From Acidobacteriaceae bacterium (GTDB lineage Bacteria > Acidobacteriota > Terriglobia > Terriglobales > Acidobacteriaceae): a DNA stretch of 64,000 nt. Numbering within the stretch: the stretch's first letter is position 1; each line of letters begins with the position of its first letter. The stretch covers positions 1 to 64,000 of the forward strand of contig JAJPKO010000021.1 in the NCBI GenBank assembly GCA_021323655.1, written 5' to 3'. The notes beneath the pieces were generated by a model, which was not told where the DNA came from, ran no database searches, and saw nothing but the letters and a program-made list of their open reading frames with translations. A program made the position numbers and the translations under genes. Shown here in pieces: positions 1 to 58,084 of the stretch.

Positions 1-144
1 ACGCGGAATGCCATTGCCAATCCCCTTCGCCGTCAGAGTGCCTGCTGGACGCGGAATGCCATTGCCAATCCCCTTCGCCGTCAGAGTGCCTGCCGGACGC
101 GGAATGCTGTTGCCAATGCCCTTCGCTGTCAAGGTTCCGGTCGG
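1..144 (-). repeat. 48-bp tandem repeat, three units visible
   Basis: Units lie at 1-48, 49-96 and 97-144. The first two differ at a single base (position 46 versus 94); the third has about eight differences. A fourth, degenerate unit follows from 145. The period is exactly 48 bp, so each unit adds 16 in-frame residues to the minus-strand gene. Near identity of the distal units suggests recent slippage or unequal-crossover expansion. The array continues past the window edge, so its copy number is unknown. Confidence 0.92.
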
Positions 145-249
145 ACGCGGTGCAGGTATCGCAATCCCCTTTGCAAAGCTGGGCATAGCGGAGGCGCTGA
201 ATGTGAGTGCTGTGGCGGCGAAAATCAGGTTACGAACGGACGTGTGCAT
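1..249 (-). CDS. Secreted 16-residue tandem-repeat protein, partial (C-terminus beyond left edge)
   Basis: Read on the minus strand, an ATG at 249 follows a strong Shine-Dalgarno (AGGAGAG, about 6 bases upstream), and 83 codons run open to the window edge. The first 26 residues form a signal peptide (MHTSVRNLIFAATALTFSAS, ending near SFA). The mature part is a tandem 16-residue repeat, KGIGNGIPRPAGTLTA, with a degenerate first copy (KGIAIPAPRPTGTLTA), one intermediate copy and two nearly identical ones still continuing at the edge. The repeat is rich in Gly, Pro and Thr with one Lys and one Arg per unit, so an extended extracellular or envelope fibre is possible. I do not recognise the family. 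The antisense frame is also open, which is expected for a repeat whose length is a multiple of three, but only this strand has an SD and signal peptide. Confidence 0.72.
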   Translation of the reverse strand, partial: MHTSVRNLIFAATALTFSASAMPSFAKGIAIPAPRPTGTLTAKGIGNSIPRPAGTLTAKGIGNGIPRPAGTLTAKGIGNGIPR

Positions 250-609: not shown

Positions 610-1353
610 TCAATAGGAAACAACCTCCCCGCTGCTTCCCATGGGAGCACTCTGCGCCAACCGCTTCGCCCGCCGGAATATTTTGAGAAACATGTCCCGG
701 GTGAGCTTACCCGTATTTGTGTTCTGCAATGAGGGATGATAGCTAGCCAGCAGCCAGCGCCCATCCGTCAGTTTGTATTCAACACCGTGGCCGAACTGCA
801 TGCCATTGCGTTTCTCTAATCGTGCATTTCGCTGCAAGTGCGTTACAAAACCATCGAACGCAATCTTTCCCAGACACACAATCACGCGCAGATTTTCTAA
901 TGCGGCAATCTCTTCATCCAAAAAGGCCGCGCAGTTGGCCAGCTCATGCGGCAGAGGTTTGTTTTCAGGGGGAGCACAGCGGGCTACGCTGGTGATCCAT
1001 ATGTCTCGTAATTCCATTCCATCATGGAGAGAAACCGAGTGTGGCTGTGAAGCAAAGCCTGCTTCATGCAAAACGGGATAAAGAAAATCGCCCGAGCCAT
1101 CTCCGGTAAACGGCCGGCCTGTACGGTTCGAGCCGTGCGCGCCTGGAGCGAGCCCCAGCAGCAACACCCGCGCACCTGGGTCGCCGAAGGACGGAACAGG
1201 CCTGCCCCAGTATTCCCAGTCCATATAGGCCCTGCGCTTCTTTCTCGCAACGGAAACGCAGTGCGTCCGCAAGCGCTCACAGGCATTGCAGGCAACAACA
1301 CGCGCATTCAGCGCCTCCAGCGCTTCCCTTGCAGATAGCAGCTTTGCGGACAC
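610..1353 (-). CDS. Family 5 uracil-DNA glycosylase (UDGb)
   Basis: Base-excision repair enzyme expected to remove uracil (and in this family often hypoxanthine or xanthine) from DNA. The 247-residue protein carries the family 5 signatures: active-site motif 1 GLAPGAHGSNRTGRPFTGDG followed by SGDFLYPVL, a central segment with ARCAPPENKPLP, and the C-terminal motif 2 SYHPSLQNTNTGKLT. N-terminal cysteines (CNAC, then a Cys after RTH) with the later RCAPP and NC cysteines fit the 4Fe-4S cluster typical of this family. The start is a GTG at 1353 with a weak SD. It is divergent from hemW, sharing a 43-bp intergenic region. Length and motifs match the family; substrate range is inferred. Confidence 0.88.
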   Translation of the reverse strand: MSAKLLSAREALEALNARVVACNACERLRTHCVSVARKKRRAYMDWEYWGRPVPSFGDPGARVLLLGLAPGAHGSNRTGRPFTGDGSGDFLYPVLHEAGFASQPHSVSLHDGMELRDIWITSVARCAPPENKPLPHELANCAAFLDEEIAALENLRVIVCLGKIAFDGFVTHLQRNARLEKRNGMQFGHGVEYKLTDGRWLLASYHPSLQNTNTGKLTRDMFLKIFRRAKRLAQSAPMGSSGEVVSY

Positions 1354-1396
1354 AGTTTAATTTTAGTGCAGCGGTGAGAAAATAGAGGGGTCCTCC

Positions 1397-2563
1397 ATGC
1401 ATCCGCTTGGCCTCTATATTTCCGTGCCGTTTTGCCGCTCCAAGTGCACCTACTGCAACTTCGCTTCGGGCGTATTTCCGGCCTCGTACATGGAGCGATA
1501 TATCGGGCGCCTCTCCGAAGACCTTCAATCTGCGGCTGCATTTACACCTGCAAATACACTGGATTCCATCTACCTGGGCGGAGGCACACCCAGCCTTCTG
1601 CCGCCTCAGCTCTTCACAACGCTGTTCCGCACAATTCGAGATCAGTTTGAAGTTCTTCAGGCTGCAGAAATCACCGTGGAATGTGCACCCGGCCAGTTGC
1701 CCGATGACACGCTCCAGGCCATGCTCGAATGCGGCGTGAATCGCATCAGCTTCGGAGTGCAGTCGTTCATAGACCAGGAAGCCAGGGCCACAGGCCGCCT
1801 GCATACGCGTGCTGTTGCACTCGCGGATCTCCGCCGCGTACAGCAAGCTGGCATCGCACGCGTAAATGCAGACCTGATTGCAGGTCTTCCTTACCAGACA
1901 GAGCAGTCCTGGCTTGAATCACTCCAGGTCCTCTGCGAAACGCAGGTGGACCACGCCAGCATCTACATGCTGGAAGTAGACGATGATTCGCGCCTGGGCA
2001 AAGAAGTCCTCAATGGCGGAGCACGCTATTTCGCACCAACCGTACCTTCAGAGGATGCCGTGGCTGAAATGTATCTGAGTGCAATCGAGACTCTCGCCTC
2101 GGCCGGTTGGCAGCAATACGAGATTTCAAACTTTGCTCGAAACAGGGCCGAGTCTCGACACAACAAAAAATACTGGCAGAGGGAACCCTATCTGGGGCTG
2201 GGAGTGGATGCGCATTCCCTGCTGCGCAACCCAGACGGCGCCGCTGTCCGCTTTGCCACCACCGATGACCTCGAAGGCTATCTGCAATCTCCGGCATGGT
2301 ACGACCGCCGCACCTTGACCCAACAGGAAGAACTGGAGGAAGCCTGGTTCCTGGGTCTGCGCTTGAATTCCGGCGTCTCGCTCAGGAAGCTCGAAGCCGA
2401 ATTCGGAACAGCAGCCATTGCAGCTTTCCGCTCCGTTATCAACGAGCTGCTCGAAGACGGTTTGCTCCTTGAATCCAACGGATCCATTCAATTAACGCCC
2501 CACGGCCGTCTGCTCTCAAACAATGTTTTCGAGCGCTTTCTGCTTTCCGGCGTTTCTGCCTGA
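1397..2563 (+). CDS. hemW: Radical SAM heme chaperone HemW
   Basis: A 388-residue HemN-like radical SAM protein. The N-terminus has the cluster motif CRSKCTYCNF (Cys13, Cys17, Cys20), followed by the glycine-rich YLGGGTPSLL SAM-binding motif and NRISFGVQSF. The fourth HemN-type cysteine of CxxxCxxCxC is Phe here, the feature that separates HemW from true oxygen-independent coproporphyrinogen oxidase. HemW binds heme and transfers it to client proteins; it was long misannotated as a second HemN. A C-terminal HemN_C domain occupies roughly residues 300-380. The ATG is preceded by GAGGGG. Confidence is high for the family and moderate for chaperone rather than oxidase activity. Confidence 0.9.
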   Translation: MHPLGLYISVPFCRSKCTYCNFASGVFPASYMERYIGRLSEDLQSAAAFTPANTLDSIYLGGGTPSLLPPQLFTTLFRTIRDQFEVLQAAEITVECAPGQLPDDTLQAMLECGVNRISFGVQSFIDQEARATGRLHTRAVALADLRRVQQAGIARVNADLIAGLPYQTEQSWLESLQVLCETQVDHASIYMLEVDDDSRLGKEVLNGGARYFAPTVPSEDAVAEMYLSAIETLASAGWQQYEISNFARNRAESRHNKKYWQREPYLGLGVDAHSLLRNPDGAAVRFATTDDLEGYLQSPAWYDRRTLTQQEELEEAWFLGLRLNSGVSLRKLEAEFGTAAIAAFRSVINELLEDGLLLESNGSIQLTPHGRLLSNNVFERFLLSGVSA

Positions 2564-2686
2564 CCAGCCATCGCAAATAGAAATCCGCCCATCATCGCAG
2601 ACGAACACTTTGCCGGAAAATGGCTGACAGAAAACAGGGCAAAGCGTACGCTTCGCAACAGAACAGTAAGCGAGAGGAAGCCATTT

Positions 2687-3226
2687 ATGAAAGTAATAAT
2701 CTTATGCACGGCAGCGGCGATGTTGGCCTGTTCTGCATACGCACAAGACACTCCTGCACAAAAACCAACGCTGCGCAGTATCCTGCTTCAGCAGATGAAA
2801 GAAACCCATAACAACAAACAATGGTTCGTACCCGCCAATGTCGCCGTAGCAGGCCTCACGCCGGAACAGGCCAACTGGAGGGACGGCAAGGGAAACCATT
2901 CCATCGGCCAGCTGGCCTACCATCTCGTCTACTGGGACACGCGCAGCCTGGAAAAATTCAAGGGTGTGCCATCGCCAAAATTCAGCGGCAACAACGATGA
3001 GACGTTCGACAACTTCGACAGCAGGAAGTGGAACGACACAGTGCATCAGCTGGATGAAGTCCTGACCGAGTGGGAAAAGGCCATTGAAACCGCCGACGAC
3101 CAGAAGCTGGAGCAATGGGCGCCCACGATTGAGAAGATCAGCACGCACAATGCCTATCACATCGGGCAGATCATCTACGTGCGTAAAGAGCAAGGGTCCT
3201 GGAACCCGGAGAACGGCGTGAAGTAA
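2687..3226 (+). CDS. Exported DinB-like putative metal-binding protein
   Basis: A 179-residue protein with an N-terminal signal peptide (about residues 1-19, ending SAYA/Q), followed by a four-helix DinB/YfiT-type fold. Sequence support is the typical opening helix (LLQQMKETHNNKQWF), the GLTPEQANWR segment, the His in QLAYHLVYW, and the C-terminal STHNAYHIGQIIYVRK that supplies the other metal-ligand histidines. DinB-fold proteins are usually cytoplasmic thiol-dependent enzymes, so the signal peptide is noteworthy, although acidobacterial genomes contain such exported versions. The ATG has a clear SD (AGAGGAAG). Function unknown. Confidence 0.78.
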   Translation: MKVIILCTAAAMLACSAYAQDTPAQKPTLRSILLQQMKETHNNKQWFVPANVAVAGLTPEQANWRDGKGNHSIGQLAYHLVYWDTRSLEKFKGVPSPKFSGNNDETFDNFDSRKWNDTVHQLDEVLTEWEKAIETADDQKLEQWAPTIEKISTHNAYHIGQIIYVRKEQGSWNPENGVK

Positions 3227-3288
3227 TCCAGCGCGCATTGCGCCCCGAACCTTTAAAATGTCTTCAGGTTCACAGGACGCATACACGC

Positions 3289-4473
3289 TTGAAACAGATC
3301 GCTATCCTCGGCTCCACCGGTTCCATCGGTACCAGCACACTCGATATCATCGAAAAATACCCGGAGCGCTTTGCTGTGGCATCGCTTGCAGCAGGGCGCA
3401 ATCTGGATGCGGTGTTTGAGCAAAGCGTACGCTGGCGCCCACGCCTTGTCTCCGTGGCGACAGAAGAGCTGGCCCAGAAGCTCGCAATGCGGCTGAAGAA
3501 TGCCGGCATATCCGGGATCGAAGTCGTTTACGGACCGGCTGGAACAGTCCGTGTAGCCACTCTGCCAGAGGTGGATTTCGTCGTCTCCGCCATTGTGGGA
3601 GTGGCCGGGCTGGAAGCCACCTACGCCGCCGTGGAAGCAGGAAAGACCATCGGCCTGGCCAATAAGGAAGCGCTCGTTGCTGCCGGGGAAATCCTGATTG
3701 CCGCGGCCCGCAAAAAGAATGTCTCCCTGCTGCCGATTGATTCCGAGCACAACGCAGTCCACCAGTGCATGCGCGCCGGAGAAAAAAGCGAAGTCCGCCG
3801 CATCTGGCTGACGGCCTCCGGTGGTCCGTTTCGCGCGCTGCCACTGGATCGTTTTGACTCCATCACCGTCGAACAGGCCCTGAAGCACCCCACCTGGGTC
3901 ATGGGCCGCCGCATTACCATTGATTCGGCCACGATGCTGAACAAAGGCCTCGAAATCATCGAGGCATGCCGGCTCTTCGATCTGCCTCCCTCCGCGGTCA
4001 AGGTCACGATCCACCCCCAATCTACTGTGCACTCTCTGGTCGAATACGTGGACGGAAGCATTCTGGCGCAGATTTCTGTCACGGACATGCGTCTGCCCAT
4101 CCTGTACGCCATGAGCCATCCCGAACGGGTCGAGTCGGCCCTTACCTTCGACATGGCATCCCTTGGCCAACTGTGCTTTGAGCCGCCCGATTTTGCCCGC
4201 TTCCCCTGCCTGCGGCTGGCCTATGAGGCAGCAGAAAAAGGGGGAGCGCACTGCATTGCCTTAAATGCAGCAGATGAAGTCGCGGTGGACGCATTTCTGA
4301 ACAAAACCATCCCCTTTCTGGGAATCGCGCGTACAATAGAAGAAGTTCTGCAGGCCACCCCCGAGGCCCACCCTGCGACCATTCAAGACGTGCTGGCATC
4401 AGACAGAAAGGCGCGTGAATTGGCCAGGGAGGCCCTGATCAGGGTCGGCTACGCCGTCTCTGACGCCCGCTGA
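3289..4473 (+). CDS. dxr: 1-Deoxy-D-xylulose 5-phosphate reductoisomerase
   Basis: Catalyses the NADPH-dependent conversion of DXP to 2-C-methyl-D-erythritol 4-phosphate, the committed step of the MEP isoprenoid pathway. The N-terminal Rossmann motif (ILGSTGSIGTSTLDII) starts a few residues after the chosen TTG start at 3289 (AGGA about 11 bases upstream); a longer in-frame reading from TTG 3238 adds 17 non-homologous residues. Family motifs: GLANKEALVAAGE, the metal-binding PIDSEHNAVHQC segment, TASGGPFR, and HPTWVMGRRITIDSATMLNKGLE. At 394 residues it matches family length. rseP follows 18 bp downstream, the common bacterial arrangement, so the two are probably co-transcribed; cdsA and uppS are absent here. 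Confidence 0.96.
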   Translation: MKQIAILGSTGSIGTSTLDIIEKYPERFAVASLAAGRNLDAVFEQSVRWRPRLVSVATEELAQKLAMRLKNAGISGIEVVYGPAGTVRVATLPEVDFVVSAIVGVAGLEATYAAVEAGKTIGLANKEALVAAGEILIAAARKKNVSLLPIDSEHNAVHQCMRAGEKSEVRRIWLTASGGPFRALPLDRFDSITVEQALKHPTWVMGRRITIDSATMLNKGLEIIEACRLFDLPPSAVKVTIHPQSTVHSLVEYVDGSILAQISVTDMRLPILYAMSHPERVESALTFDMASLGQLCFEPPDFARFPCLRLAYEAAEKGGAHCIALNAADEVAVDAFLNKTIPFLGIARTIEEVLQATPEAHPATIQDVLASDRKARELAREALIRVGYAVSDAR

Positions 4474-21818: not shown

Positions 21819-21917
21819 GTGCCGGGTCCTACGCGGCGCAATCCCGCCAACCCCGCCAGGCCCGGAAGGGAGCAACGGTAACGGGCCAGTGCGTGCGCAG
21901 TAGGTCCCCCGGTGCAC
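21819..21917 (+). ncRNA. ffs: Bacterial small signal recognition particle RNA (4.5S type)
   Basis: The conserved apical domain is unmistakable: GCCAGGCCCGGAAGGGAGCA with the GGAA-type tetraloop and the asymmetric internal loop (AGCA side) that bind Ffh. The outer stem pairs GTGCCGGGTCCTAC at the 5' end with GTAGGTCCCCCGGTGCAC at the 3' end. The total of about 99 nt is the Gram-negative 4.5S size without an Alu domain. It acts with Ffh and FtsY in co-translational membrane targeting. It lies between the Uma2 remnant and fabH. Confidence 0.95.
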
Positions 21918-23577: not shown

Positions 23578-23958
23578 TCACTCGCCGGTAAGCCACGCAA
23601 ACTGTGCATCGTTCAACGGAACCACCGACAATCTCCCCTGCCGAACCAAAGGTGAATCTGCAAACAGCGCGTTGGCTTTGATCTCCGCAAGTGTCCGCGG
23701 CGTCTTGATCGCCGAACCGGCTTTGATCCGGACAACGGGCGACTTAGGATTTTCCGAATCGACCGAAACAACCTTTGCGGTCCCCACCGCTGTGCGCTCG
23801 TCCCCCGTGTGGTAAATCACGAGTTTCTCGCCCGGCTTCATGTTACGCAAAAACTTCAGTGCGACAGGGTTCGTGACACCGTCCCAGACCGTTTCGCCTT
23901 CGCGTTCCAGGTCATGAAAGGAGTACGTTTCCGGTTCCGTCTTCAGCAGGTAATGCAT
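23578..23958 (-). CDS. EVE domain protein
   Basis: 126 residues covering one complete EVE/PUA-like domain: N-terminal MHYLLKTEPETYSFHDLERE, then the modified-base pocket region TVWDGVTNPVALKFLRNMKPGE and VIYHTGDERTAVG. EVE domains bind modified cytosine or related bases in nucleic acids and occur in RNA modification and DNA restriction contexts. The ATG has a strong GGAGG SD located inside the 3' end of the upstream YhaM-like gene; the genes overlap by 47 bp, so they are co-transcribed and probably coupled. Confidence 0.9.
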   Translation of the reverse strand: MHYLLKTEPETYSFHDLEREGETVWDGVTNPVALKFLRNMKPGEKLVIYHTGDERTAVGTAKVVSVDSENPKSPVVRIKAGSAIKTPRTLAEIKANALFADSPLVRQGRLSVVPLNDAQFAWLTGE

Positions 23959-24985
23959 CGCTTTCCTCCGGGACTGCTTTGGGCTCCGGCGGGGCTTCCG
24001 GTTCCGGTGCCAGATATTGCGCAGTGTTCAGCAAAGGACGGTCCAGTGCGCGCACCCATTCTGTCATTTGCCCAGGGCCGCGTCCATTGGCTTCTGCGCG
24101 AGCAAGTTCGCCTCGCACCGTCTGCATCTTCGCGTCCAGGTCATCAATGTAATGCAGCATCACGGCTTCCGGAACCATCGGCAGCTTTGGCGAGCCAAAT
24201 TCATACTTCCCGTGATGGCTCACAACCATATGCTCCACCAGAACGCGTAATGGCTCAGGGAAATCCGGCAACGAAGTAACCTTCTGCTCGATCATGCGAA
24301 TACCGATCGTAATGTGGCCTACAAGCTGGCCTTCGATCGTGTAGTCAAAGCGGGTCCCCCACTGCAGTTCGCGCAGTTTGCCAATATCGTGCAGCATGAC
24401 CCCGGTCAGAAGCAGGTCCCGATTGACCTCCGGATACCGCTTCGCCATATCGCTGGCTACTCCCATCAGCGAAACGATATGCTCCAGCAGTCCGCCAATC
24501 CAGGCATGATGCATCGCCTTGGCGGCTGGCGCAGACCTCAGCGCTTCCGCAATCTGCGGGTCATCCAGAAAAGCGCGCAAAAGCGCATGCAGGTGCGGAT
24601 TGGTAAAACTATCTACAAACTCATTCAGTTTCTGCCAAAGCTCAACAATGTTCCGTGAAGTCTTCGGCACAAAATCGGCCAGGTCGTACTCTTCCTTGTC
24701 CCTGTCTTCCGCCTTCCGGATCTTCTCAACTTTCAGCTGGAGTCTCTCCTGATACCGGCAGACCTGCCCGCGCACTTTCACCACATCGCCTGACGCAAAA
24801 TCGCCAAGAATGGACGCCATTTCCCATACCCGGCATTCAATCTGCCCCGTGCGGTCGCAAATGGAAATAGCAAAATAAGGCGCGCCGTCCCGCGTGCTGC
24901 GCGTTTGCTTCTGCGCAACAACAAAAAAGCCATCAATCACCTGGTTCTCCAGTCCCGCCAGGTCCTGAATGAAGAGCTCTTTCAT
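23912..24985 (-). CDS. YhaM-like 3'-5' exoribonuclease (OB-fold plus HD domain)
   Basis: 357 residues. Residues 12-100 form an OB-fold nucleic-acid-binding domain (GAPYFAISICDRTGQIECRVW and SGDVVKVRGQVCRYQ). Residues 150-310 form an HD phosphohydrolase domain with HHAWIGGLLEHI, MLHDIGKLRE, VEHMVVSHHGKYEFGSPK and HYIDDLDAKMQ, the same order as Bacillus YhaM. A proline/glutamate-rich tail of about 40 residues is the part overlapped by the EVE gene. YhaM trims RNA (and single-stranded DNA) from the 3' end with Mn. The pairing with an EVE base reader is suggestive of nucleic-acid processing. Confidence 0.88.
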   Translation of the reverse strand: MKELFIQDLAGLENQVIDGFFVVAQKQTRSTRDGAPYFAISICDRTGQIECRVWEMASILGDFASGDVVKVRGQVCRYQERLQLKVEKIRKAEDRDKEEYDLADFVPKTSRNIVELWQKLNEFVDSFTNPHLHALLRAFLDDPQIAEALRSAPAAKAMHHAWIGGLLEHIVSLMGVASDMAKRYPEVNRDLLLTGVMLHDIGKLRELQWGTRFDYTIEGQLVGHITIGIRMIEQKVTSLPDFPEPLRVLVEHMVVSHHGKYEFGSPKLPMVPEAVMLHYIDDLDAKMQTVRGELARAEANGRGPGQMTEWVRALDRPLLNTAQYLAPEPEAPPEPKAVPEESDALPAEDGTGNVLLS

Positions 24986-51682: not shown

Positions 51683-51775
51683 TGGCGGAGAGAGAGGGAT
51701 TCGAACCCTCGATAGAGCTTTTGACCCTATAACGGTTTAGCAAACCGCCGCCTTCAGCCTCTCGGCCATCTCTCC
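51683..51775 (-). tRNA. tRNA-Ser(GCU)
   Basis: On the minus strand GGAGAGATGGCCGAGAGGCT begins the acceptor and D arm. The anticodon loop reads TTTGCTAAACC with anticodon GCT (complement of 51739-51741), and a long variable arm follows, typical of class II tRNA-Ser. The T loop is GGTTCGAATCC, the acceptor closes with TCTCTCC and an encoded GCCA tail at 51686-51683. Reads AGC/AGU codons. Confidence 0.97.
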
Positions 51776-55741: not shown

Positions 55742-55951
55742 ATGGAAACATTCGGATCGCCGGATAGTGATGCCATTCGCCGTCTGGAACAGCAGCATCG
55801 TCACTATTCGGAAAAACTTGACAACCTGCTCCAGAAACCCTACCTGTCTGCTGAGGAACAACTCGAAGAAGTTCGGCTTAAAAAGCTTAAATTATCCATC
55901 AAAGACCAGATCGCTGCCCTACGGAATGGCATGTACCATCACGTAGCATGA
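55742..55951 (+). CDS. DUF465/YdcH-family small protein
   Basis: 69 residues from the ATG at 55742, behind a near-perfect SD (AAAGGAGGTG). Helical hairpin: SDAIRRLEQQHRHYSEKLDN, a proline turn (KPYLSAEEQ) and VRLKKLKLSIKDQI, matching DUF465. The function is unknown. An upstream in-frame extension to 55700 lacks an SD. It lies about 90 bp before the CRISPR-like repeats. Confidence 0.88.
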   Translation: METFGSPDSDAIRRLEQQHRHYSEKLDNLLQKPYLSAEEQLEEVRLKKLKLSIKDQIAALRNGMYHHVA

Positions 55952-56039
55952 TCCGCAAAACAGGCCTGGCGTTGGGTCGGCACCGCCTCCTTCTGCCTGT
56001 CAGGGGCCAGGGTGCCTGTACTCTGCCTTCGCTCGAAGA

Positions 56040-56147
56040 GGTGTGACCACCATAGCAACTGACCAGCATACACAGTCGACCGCCTTTTTTGTGGGAAAGG
56101 CTCCGGCCTGGGGTGTGACCACCATAGCAACTGACCAGCATACACAG
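56040..56147. CRISPR. CRISPR-like element: two identical 36-bp repeats, one 36-bp spacer
   Basis: Two identical 36-base repeats lie at 56040-56075 and 56112-56147. They start GGTGTGACCACC and end GCATACACAG. The unique sequence between them is exactly 36 bases (56076-56111). Repeat and spacer lengths are those of a minimal CRISPR array, and the repeat ends are weakly complementary (GTGT/ACAC), a feature seen in several CRISPR types. No cas gene or leader is visible here, and flanking sequence shows no third repeat. It could also be a chance duplication or a remnant. Orientation is unknown. Confidence 0.5.
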
Positions 56148-56304
56148 GAGAAATTCTCCCCGTATGTGGTATGCCGAGATTGCGGGCGAAGTGCGGAATA
56201 TGCGCGTCGGATAGGCGTTCCCTTCTACCAGCACCGGACGCCCATAAGGATGTAGCTATGTCATGTTGCTCTGAAACACGGCAAGCGCAGCCTTGAGAGA
56301 CAGC

Positions 56305-56334
56305 AAAAAGGGCAAGGTCTGTGTGACCCTGCCC
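56305..56334 (-). terminator. Intrinsic terminator of the chemoreceptor gene
   Basis: On the minus strand GGGCAGGGTC (56334-56325) pairs with GACCTTGCCC (56319-56310), one mismatch, followed by TTTTT (56309-56305). Confidence 0.8.
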
Positions 56335-56356
56335 GATCGTGGATTCTTTGCTGCAG

Positions 56357-58084
56357 CTAATCGCCGTAGGCAGCAGCAGTTTGCGGTGCGAAGCTCCGTG
56401 GTCCGAAGGCTGGGCGCACGGCTCTGCTGCCTTCTTCCAGCTTGAAGCGAGAGATGTGTTCCTGGAGTCGCTTCGCTCCGGATTGCACTGAGGTGACGAT
56501 GGCGTTGCTCTCCGGGATAGAGGCTGCGTTCTCTTCGCCAAGGCGATTAATGATGTCCACATTAGCGCTGGATTGGCGGGCAGCTTCTGATTGCTGCATC
56601 GCTGCGGCGGCAATCTGGGCGATCATGCTGTCTACCTGGTCGGACATGTGGATGATCCGTTGCAAGGCCTCCCCGGCGCGGGTCGTGGTTTCAACACCCT
56701 CGTTGACGGTGGTCGTGCCGACATCCATGGCTTCTACCGCGGAACGGGTATGCACCTGAATGCCTTCGATCATCTGTGCAATTTCGCTGGTGGCATTGCG
56801 TGTGCTTTCTGCAAGGCGCCTGACTTCGCCAGCGACTACGGCAAAACCGCGTCCCTGTTCCCCGGCGCGGGCGGCTTCAATGGCTGCGTTCAGGGCGAGC
56901 AAGTTGGTCTTCTGCGCGATTTCTTCAATCACATTGACGATGCGGATGATCTGTTCCGATTCTTTTCCGAGGCGCTGTACAGTGCTGGCCGTATTGCGCA
57001 CGGAATCGGCAATGGACTGCATGGAGAGAAGCATCTGCTCCACCGTTGAACCGCCTTCTTTTGCGGTCTTCGAGGCCTCCTTGGCATTTTCTGCGGCGTT
57101 CTGCGCATGCCGGGAAACCTCAGCGATGCTGATAGACATTTCCTGCATGGCTGTTGCCGCCTGCTGCGTTTGCAGGCTCTGTTCCTTGGTGCGGCGGAAA
57201 AGTTCGGCCGCCGAATGCGCCAGCTTTTCCGCATCACCGTGGACCGTGTTGGAAATCTCCATCATCGCGCGAATCATCTCGCGCAGATTGTCCTGCATCC
57301 GGTTGATGGATGTGGCCAGGCTGCCGACTTCGTCTTCTGAGTCTGTGTGCAGAGGCTCACCCGTGAGGTTTCCTTCAGCGATCTGCTGCGCGCGGTCCGC
57401 GACCAGAATAATGGAGCGCACAACGCGACGAAGGGTAAGTTCCGCGATGGAAGAGCCAATGACTCCGCCGAACACAATGGCAAGCCAAAGATAAATGGCT
57501 TGCCATCGTATGGCATGTACCGTCTCATGCAGACTGGCATCGGTTGCGTGCATTACCGCGGCCACCATGTCTGAAGAGACTTTTCGACACGCGGCTTCGT
57601 GGTTAGCAACATCGCCCTGCAAAAGATCATAGGCTTTACTGGTAGCATCACTGCCCTGACCAATGGCCATTGCCTCAACGCGCTCCTGGCCTTGTTCAAA
57701 CGAGCGGTACTCAGCCAGCAGTGCGTCCGTCTGTCCACTCCCAGCCATCGCATCTATCGCCTGGCGCCGCGCAAGAATGCGGGTGATAGCATCGCTCGCA
57801 TCGGCCCTGCCCTTTTCCAGCATCGTTTTGTAACGCGAGGCCATGCTGGGATCAATGCCAAACAGCATATACGCCTTCAATGCGTTAGAAGAATCAAGCA
57901 GCGCCACGCGCAGGTCGCGCACGGCCGTCAAAGCAGGAATCTGTTCTGATGCGACATTTTCAGCAAGCTGGCTGGCCTGCCGCATTTTCAGAAAGGCCGC
58001 CATCGAACCAAGCAGGATGCTCACGACCAACACGCCGGTGCTAAAGCGCAGCTTGTTTATCAGGCGCAACTGTGTGAATGTCAT
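56357..58084 (-). CDS. Methyl-accepting chemotaxis protein
   Basis: 575 residues. TM1 at about 15-33, a periplasmic four-helix-bundle sensor (34-190), TM2 at about 195-213, HAMP (215-270), then the cytoplasmic signalling hairpin with the invariant tip [39 protein letters not shown]. Adaptation-helix Glu/Gln pairs are visible on both sides. The C-terminus lacks a CheR-binding pentapeptide. No other che genes are in the window, so it is an orphan receptor feeding a chemosensory array elsewhere. Ligand unknown. Confidence 0.94.

What the first reader, a model, noticed from the sequence alone, without database searches (positions are those of the whole stretch)
56040..56147. Orphan two-repeat CRISPR-like element with 36-bp repeats and 36-bp spacer
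Two exact 36-base repeats with exactly 36 bases between them sit in an intergenic region beside a DUF465 gene. The geometry is that of a minimal CRISPR array, and no transposon or gene explains it. No cas genes are visible, so it would be a remnant or an array served in trans.
Basis: seen in the sequence. Interest (0 to 1): 0.62.

Follow-up and report, generated by a model that had tools for sequence, protein, structure and literature searches.

The report
Possible misplaced CRISPR spacer insertion
A 36-base stretch flanked by two identical copies of a 36-base sequence has exactly the size of one repeat-spacer unit of the CRISPR type that this bacterium carries elsewhere, but an unrelated repeat, so it may be a spacer inserted in the wrong place rather than a CRISPR array; a chance DNA duplication is not excluded.

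Summary
In detail: two identical 36-bp copies (R) at 56040-56075 and 56112-56147 enclose 36 bp (S), between the 3' ends of convergent DUF465 and MCP genes. R has only these copies in the 4.59-Mb assembly and none in 398 other genomes of the class (<=3 mismatches). R is not a CRISPR repeat in sequence: its stem is weak, it does not resemble the genus repeat, and no leader, promoter or protospacer was found. "No cas genes" does not hold for the genome, which carries a type I-G operon with Cas4-Cas1 and Cas2. The sister species' I-G array has 36-bp repeats and 34-39-bp spacers (36 commonest), so the orphan's 36+36 unit has exactly the size made by this genus's own spacer-acquisition machinery. 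Best reading (about 50%): an ectopic Cas1-Cas2 integration that duplicated a 36-bp target around a 36-bp insert, probably inert. A spontaneous spaced duplication is the main rival (about 33%). Neither an empty site nor a source of S was found, so the mechanism is inferred, not shown. Off-target integration is known from E. coli; this would be a natural case in a type I-G host.

The parts
56040..56075 (.). R, first 36-bp copy (proposed duplicated target site); holds TGACCA[CG]CATA twice at a 16-bp period (56044, 56060)
56076..56111 (.). S, 36 bp between the copies (proposed inserted spacer); no other copy in the own genome at <=3 mismatches
56112..56147 (.). R, second 36-bp copy, identical to the first; same internal motifs at 56116 and 56132
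55952..56356 (.). convergent intergenic region that holds the element; no sigma-70-like promoter in the scan of 55900-56400; one terminator-like hairpin on the minus strand (56334-56310) behind the MCP gene
55742..55951 (+). DUF465 gene (PF04325), with a match in 133 of 150 family genomes searched (own included)
56357..58084 (-). methyl-accepting chemotaxis protein gene (MCPsignal, HAMP); no match to it in the other 29 DUF465 loci fetched (about 1.5 kb each side)

Best explanation
R-S-R is the scar of one ectopic (off-target) spacer integration. The cell's type I-G Cas4-Cas1/Cas2 integrase joined a trimmed 36-bp prespacer to the two strands of an ordinary intergenic sequence 36 bp apart; gap repair then duplicated that 36-bp target, leaving R-S-R with R unrelated to the real CRISPR repeat. 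Shown here: the exact 36/36/36 anatomy; open cas4-cas1 and cas2 genes in the genome; 36-bp repeats and mostly 35-38-bp spacers in the sister species' I-G array. Inferred: that Cas1-Cas2 made the element, that the adaptation genes are active, and that S came from foreign DNA. The locus is probably inert: no promoter was detected and R lacks the strong stem of the genus repeat.
For: Exact 36+36+36 anatomy with a maximal repeat length of 36. Own genome: one Cas1 match (E 1.8e-85) in a Cas4-Cas1 fusion, with Cas2, Cas3, a PF09617 (Csb1-type Cas7) protein and a sub-cut-off PF09609 match on C65, beside one repeat at the contig edge. Sister G001: homologous cas genes (45-84% protein identity, Cas4-Cas1 79%) beside an array of 48 repeats of 36 bp; of 47 intervals 46 are 34-39 bp, 19 of them exactly 36 and 44 of them 35-38, and one is 102 bp. 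Published I-G arrays of Bifidobacterium lactis: 36-bp repeats, spacers close to 36 bp (PMC12915315, passages). Cas1-Cas2 integration duplicates the repeat around the insert and uses 'a particularly long target site' of size nearly matched to the insert (PMC8390005, passages). Cas1-Cas2 overexpression gives spacer integration at non-array sites (Nivala et al. 2018 as cited in PMC11788318, passages). In 2,328,951 bases from five genomes the element is the only exact pair with length 30-42 and gap 30-42 outside the genuine G001 array.
Against: No empty site: the 301-bp region has no match in the other 199 of 200 family genomes (which scored only three candidate places per genome). No source for S in the own genome, 397 other family genomes, plasmids or viral contigs; three phage records give only partial matches of 22-25 bp at E 5, and one 19-bp viral match does not extend. 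The site does not resemble the native leader-repeat junction beyond chance (175 of 2000 random window places reach the best of four alignment scores), whereas off-target sites in E. coli resemble the native locus (recalled; that integration is raised near IHF-like motifs is cited in PMC9456107, passage). That test is weak, since the two native leaders do not match each other in register beyond chance either. The own genome's array is missing from the assembly, so the spacer geometry is taken from the sister species.
Confidence: 0.5

Rival explanations
1. A spontaneous short duplication (slippage or template switching in non-coding DNA) copied 36 bp to a place 72 bp away; the CRISPR-like size is coincidence, noticed because the reader looked for such geometry.
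For: Short-range exact duplications occur in these genomes: in 2,328,951 bases, besides the element and the genuine array, one search lists 7 isolated pairs and 9 multi-pair clusters of >=24 bp, e.g. G001 37 bp with gap 83 and, in G118, a 45-bp pair with gap 125 that no open frame spans. R carries an internal 11-bp direct repeat at 16 bp (38 of 20,000 letter shuffles reach its score), which suggests earlier local duplication. The region is not conserved, so it tolerates change.
Against: No other isolated pair has a gap of 20-60, and no pair in or out of clusters has length 30-42 with gap 30-42 outside the genuine array. Both lengths match the resident subtype. The 72-bp unit is not simply tandem: what follows the second R is not S.
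Confidence: 0.33
2. A genuine minimal orphan CRISPR array of a different, lost system.
For: Two identical repeats and a unique spacer, in a plausible size range.
Against: Weak stem in R; 0 of 398 other genomes of the class have R; no promoter-like site; no full protospacer match; only one Cas1 in the genome and no Cas9 above the cut-off. Cas10 and Cas12 were not searched, and no CRISPR repeat database was available.
Confidence: 0.07
3. Paired binding sites: four TGACCA[CG]CATA motifs at 56044, 56060, 56116, 56132 bind a regulator or nucleoid protein.
For: The motif recurs at an exact 16-bp period within R.
Against: No other pair with that spacing in the own genome at <=3 mismatches (other spacings were scanned only in about 482 kb); the region lies behind both neighbour genes, not upstream of either.
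Confidence: 0.07
4. Part of a small protein gene (ORF 56043-56255, 70 aa, with the repeat in frame).
For: 72 bp is a multiple of 3 and the frame is open.
Against: No Pfam match up to E 1; no convincing relative in 199 other family genomes (19 weak matches at E <= 0.1, the best E 0.0016, 36% over 56 aa with a stop inside); codon score -0.14 against +0.27 to +0.44 for three neighbour genes, which were among the eight used for training.
Confidence: 0.03

Closest known systems
Off-target (non-canonical) Cas1-Cas2 spacer integration, 'neo-CRISPR' loci (Nivala, Shipman and Church 2018; the paper is not held and was seen only as cited in others)
   Same: spacer-sized insert flanked by a duplicated, repeat-sized piece of non-CRISPR chromosome
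   Different: would be a natural event in a type I-G host with 36/36 bp; the E. coli work used overexpressed Cas1-Cas2 (PMC11788318, passage) of type I-E (recalled); no source of the insert and no native-site resemblance shown here
Type I-G (formerly I-U) CRISPR array, as in sister species G001 and Bifidobacterium lactis
   Same: 36-bp repeat, 36-bp spacer
   Different: unrelated repeat without the strong stem, no cas genes beside it, no leader detected, one spacer
False-CRISPR elements (PMC5294841, passages)
   Same: repeat-spacer geometry without shown CRISPR function
   Different: not listed as a tandem repeat by TRF; the STAR-like signature and simple-repeat classes were not formally tested; a single pair

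Membership tests
CRISPR array (type I-G) | repeat related to the genus I-G repeat | tested here: not met
   8-12 of 36 identical in register, reached by 779-3688 of 5000 shuffles
CRISPR array (type I-G) | repeat with a strong stem-loop | tested here: not met
   -4.7/-5.4 kcal/mol against -15.0/-15.9 for the genus repeats
CRISPR array (type I-G) | 36-bp repeat and about 36-bp spacer | tested here: met
   PMC12915315 (passages)
CRISPR array (type I-G) | spacer matches a mobile element | tested here: inconclusive
   no full match, only partial ones, in the phage, plasmid, viral-contig and family searches; most spacers have no known match (recalled)
CRISPR array (type I-G) | cas genes or leader beside the array | tested here: not met
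   neighbours are DUF465 and MCP; flanks do not resemble the native leader junctions beyond chance, a weak test
Off-target spacer integration | host has Cas1-Cas2 | tested here: met
   activity not tested
Off-target spacer integration | target duplication of the host's repeat length around an insert of its spacer length | tested here: met
   36/36 against 36/34-39 in the sister species; the own array is not assembled
Off-target spacer integration | uninterrupted single-copy target in a relative | tested here: inconclusive
   no homologous region in the other 199 of 200 family genomes; only one other genome of the genus is held
Off-target spacer integration | insert derived from other DNA | tested here: inconclusive
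   no source found
Off-target spacer integration | site resembles the native leader-repeat junction (recalled for E. coli) | tested here: inconclusive
   best alignment is out of register; 175 of 2000 random places do as well; the two native leaders themselves do not match in register, so the test has little power

The most novel reading that the evidence does not exclude
A natural birth of a new one-spacer CRISPR-like locus: the type I-G Cas4-Cas1/Cas2 integrase wrote a spacer into non-CRISPR DNA and thereby created a new, unrelated 36-bp repeat.
Probability: 0.47. Interest if true: 0.6.

Novelty: new member of a known kind. Interest (0 to 1): 0.42.

Why it matters
If true, single repeat-spacer-repeat units with unrelated repeats, usually discarded as false CRISPRs, record off-target activity of CRISPR integrases in nature. 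They could be found systematically by matching their geometry to the resident system, which makes the rate and consequences of off-target integration, and the origin of new arrays, testable from genomes alone.

Tried and rejected
Dispersed repeat or mobile element: only two copies in the genome. Tandem duplication of a 72-bp unit: the sequence after the second R is not S. Known RNA: no Rfam family at the element; the region folds no better than shuffles (z -0.06). Whole region against plasmids and phages: no match; a 25-base block of R in viral contigs: no match. Protein gene. Cas9: one sub-cut-off match at C56; sub-cut-off matches also occur in 4 of 14 control genomes. Resemblance of the site to the native leader-repeat junction: 14 of 1000 letter shuffles for one of four local comparisons and 211 of 5000 for one in-register comparison, but 175 of 2000 real places when the best of the four local scores is taken, so not used as support. 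Viral 19-bp match: ends abruptly, taken as chance. One search used the single genome-contig scan on the TsaB-like neighbour gene and gave one relative, Acidobacterium sp. S8, whose region downstream of DUF465 differs. One search (PMC8616872, passages) gave nothing on off-target integration; (PMC11687729, passages) concerns orphan arrays of P. aeruginosa and only mentions one off-target site; (PMC7913763, passages) concerns false positives of CRISPR finders.

Full report
Observation. The window holds GGTGTGACCACCATAGCAACTGACCAGCATACACAG twice, at 56040-56075 and 56112-56147, with 36 other bases between. The match is maximal at exactly 36 bases. None of 100 shuffles of the window held a copy at up to 3 mismatches. 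The genome has no third copy, and a search with the whole element at E up to 10 gave only six fragments of 14-22 bp elsewhere.

Context. The element lies between the 3' ends of a DUF465 gene (55742-55951, +) and an MCP gene (56357-58084, -). The 301-bp region has no match in the other 199 of 200 genomes of the same family, with three candidate places scored per genome. The only other genome held for the genus, G001, keeps the DUF465 gene but has a different neighbour. Of 30 DUF465 loci fetched (133 of 150 genomes have a match), the 29 besides our own show no repeat pair of >=14 bp in the 600 bp downstream, no similarity to the element in the 900 bp downstream, and no MCP match. A scan of 55900-56400 found no promoter-like site and one terminator-like hairpin on the minus strand behind the MCP gene. 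The one named relative is Acidobacterium sp. S8, so the host is probably an acidobacterium (inference).

Not a conventional CRISPR. R has a weak stem, while the two genus repeats fold at about -15 kcal/mol. R is no more like those repeats than shuffles often are. None of 398 other genomes of the class holds R at up to 3 mismatches. S has no match in plasmid records, only partial matches of 22-25 bp at E 5 in three phage records, none in 397 other family genomes at up to 3 mismatches, and in viral contigs none by two exact blocks, one 19-bp match that does not extend by a third, and none by three patterns that free every third base.

The resident system. The large protein between Cas3 and Cas7 has no significant Pfam match; I call it Cas8 by position, and it is 45% identical to a protein of the matching operon in G001. 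The subtype name I-G is my reading of this gene set. One repeat stands at the very start of the contig, with no other copy at <=3 mismatches, so the rest of the array seems to be lost at an assembly break. G001 carries the homologous operon beside an array of 48 repeats, 47 of them exact; 46 of the 47 intervals are 34-39 bp (34 once, 35 ten times, 36 nineteen, 37 eight, 38 seven, 39 once), and one of 102 bp holds a damaged repeat. Type I-G arrays in Bifidobacterium lactis also have 36-bp repeats and spacers close to 36 bp (PMC12915315, passages).

Mechanism. Cas1-Cas2 integration attacks the two ends of the repeat on opposite strands, and repair duplicates the repeat around the insert (PMC8390005, passages). 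Off-target, it would duplicate an arbitrary target of repeat length around a spacer-length insert. That is the anatomy seen: right sizes, unrelated sequence, two identical copies. I know of no transposase that leaves a 36-bp duplication around a 36-bp insert (recalled). Overexpressed E. coli Cas1-Cas2 integrates outside arrays (Nivala et al. 2018, as cited in PMC11788318, passage); from memory, that paper also reports putative natural cases in Yersinia pestis and Sulfolobus islandicus. I could not read it, and a search for those words listed no paper that confirms it (10 of 39 listed).

How strong is it? In 2,328,951 bases from five genomes no other isolated exact pair of >=24 bp has a gap of 20-60, and outside the genuine G001 array no other pair at all has length 30-42 with gap 30-42. 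Other duplications, many of them tandem or in open frames, do occur. By my rough judgement, not a computed value, that favours integration over coincidence by about tenfold, against an unknown and probably low prior. Against it stand the missing empty site, the missing source of S, and no significant likeness of the site to the native leader-repeat junction (a weak test). R's internal repeat TGACCA[CG]CATA at a 16-bp period is unexplained by integration and fits a history of local duplication somewhat better. I therefore put integration at about one half.

Literature. Searches of the held library for non-canonical or off-target spacer integration and neo-CRISPR and for type I-G, I-U or orphan CRISPR and Acidobacteria listed no report of such a case in a type I-G host, judged from titles and starts of abstracts and, for the papers named here, passages. 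The library holds open-licence papers only. False-CRISPR elements are a known problem: 3224 of 11,729 predicted CRISPRs in one survey (PMC5294841, passages).

Noticed in passing
window 1-150; L137 (G000:C64) 1-101: 48-bp tandem repeats start contig C27, and the reverse-complement unit starts contig C64, so the two contigs may join through, or end in copies of, the same repetitive gene.
   Followed up: partly
L131 17595 to L090 about 1093 (G001): Type I-G array of 48 repeats in the sister species, one 102-bp interval holding a repeat shortened by an internal deletion.
   Followed up: yes
L035 1-36 (G000:C65): The genome's own I-G array is cut off at the first repeat by a contig end.
   Followed up: yes
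56044, 56060, 56116, 56132: The 11-bp motif TGACCA[CG]CATA occurs twice in each R at a 16-bp period and nowhere else in the genome as a pair with that spacing; unexplained.
   Followed up: partly
21820-21916 (+) and 51686-51775 (-): Small SRP RNA and a tRNA gene.
   Followed up: no
G001:C1:338861-340013 and 23880-24226: Dense tandem arrays of about 133 bp and 48 bp in the sister species.
   Followed up: no
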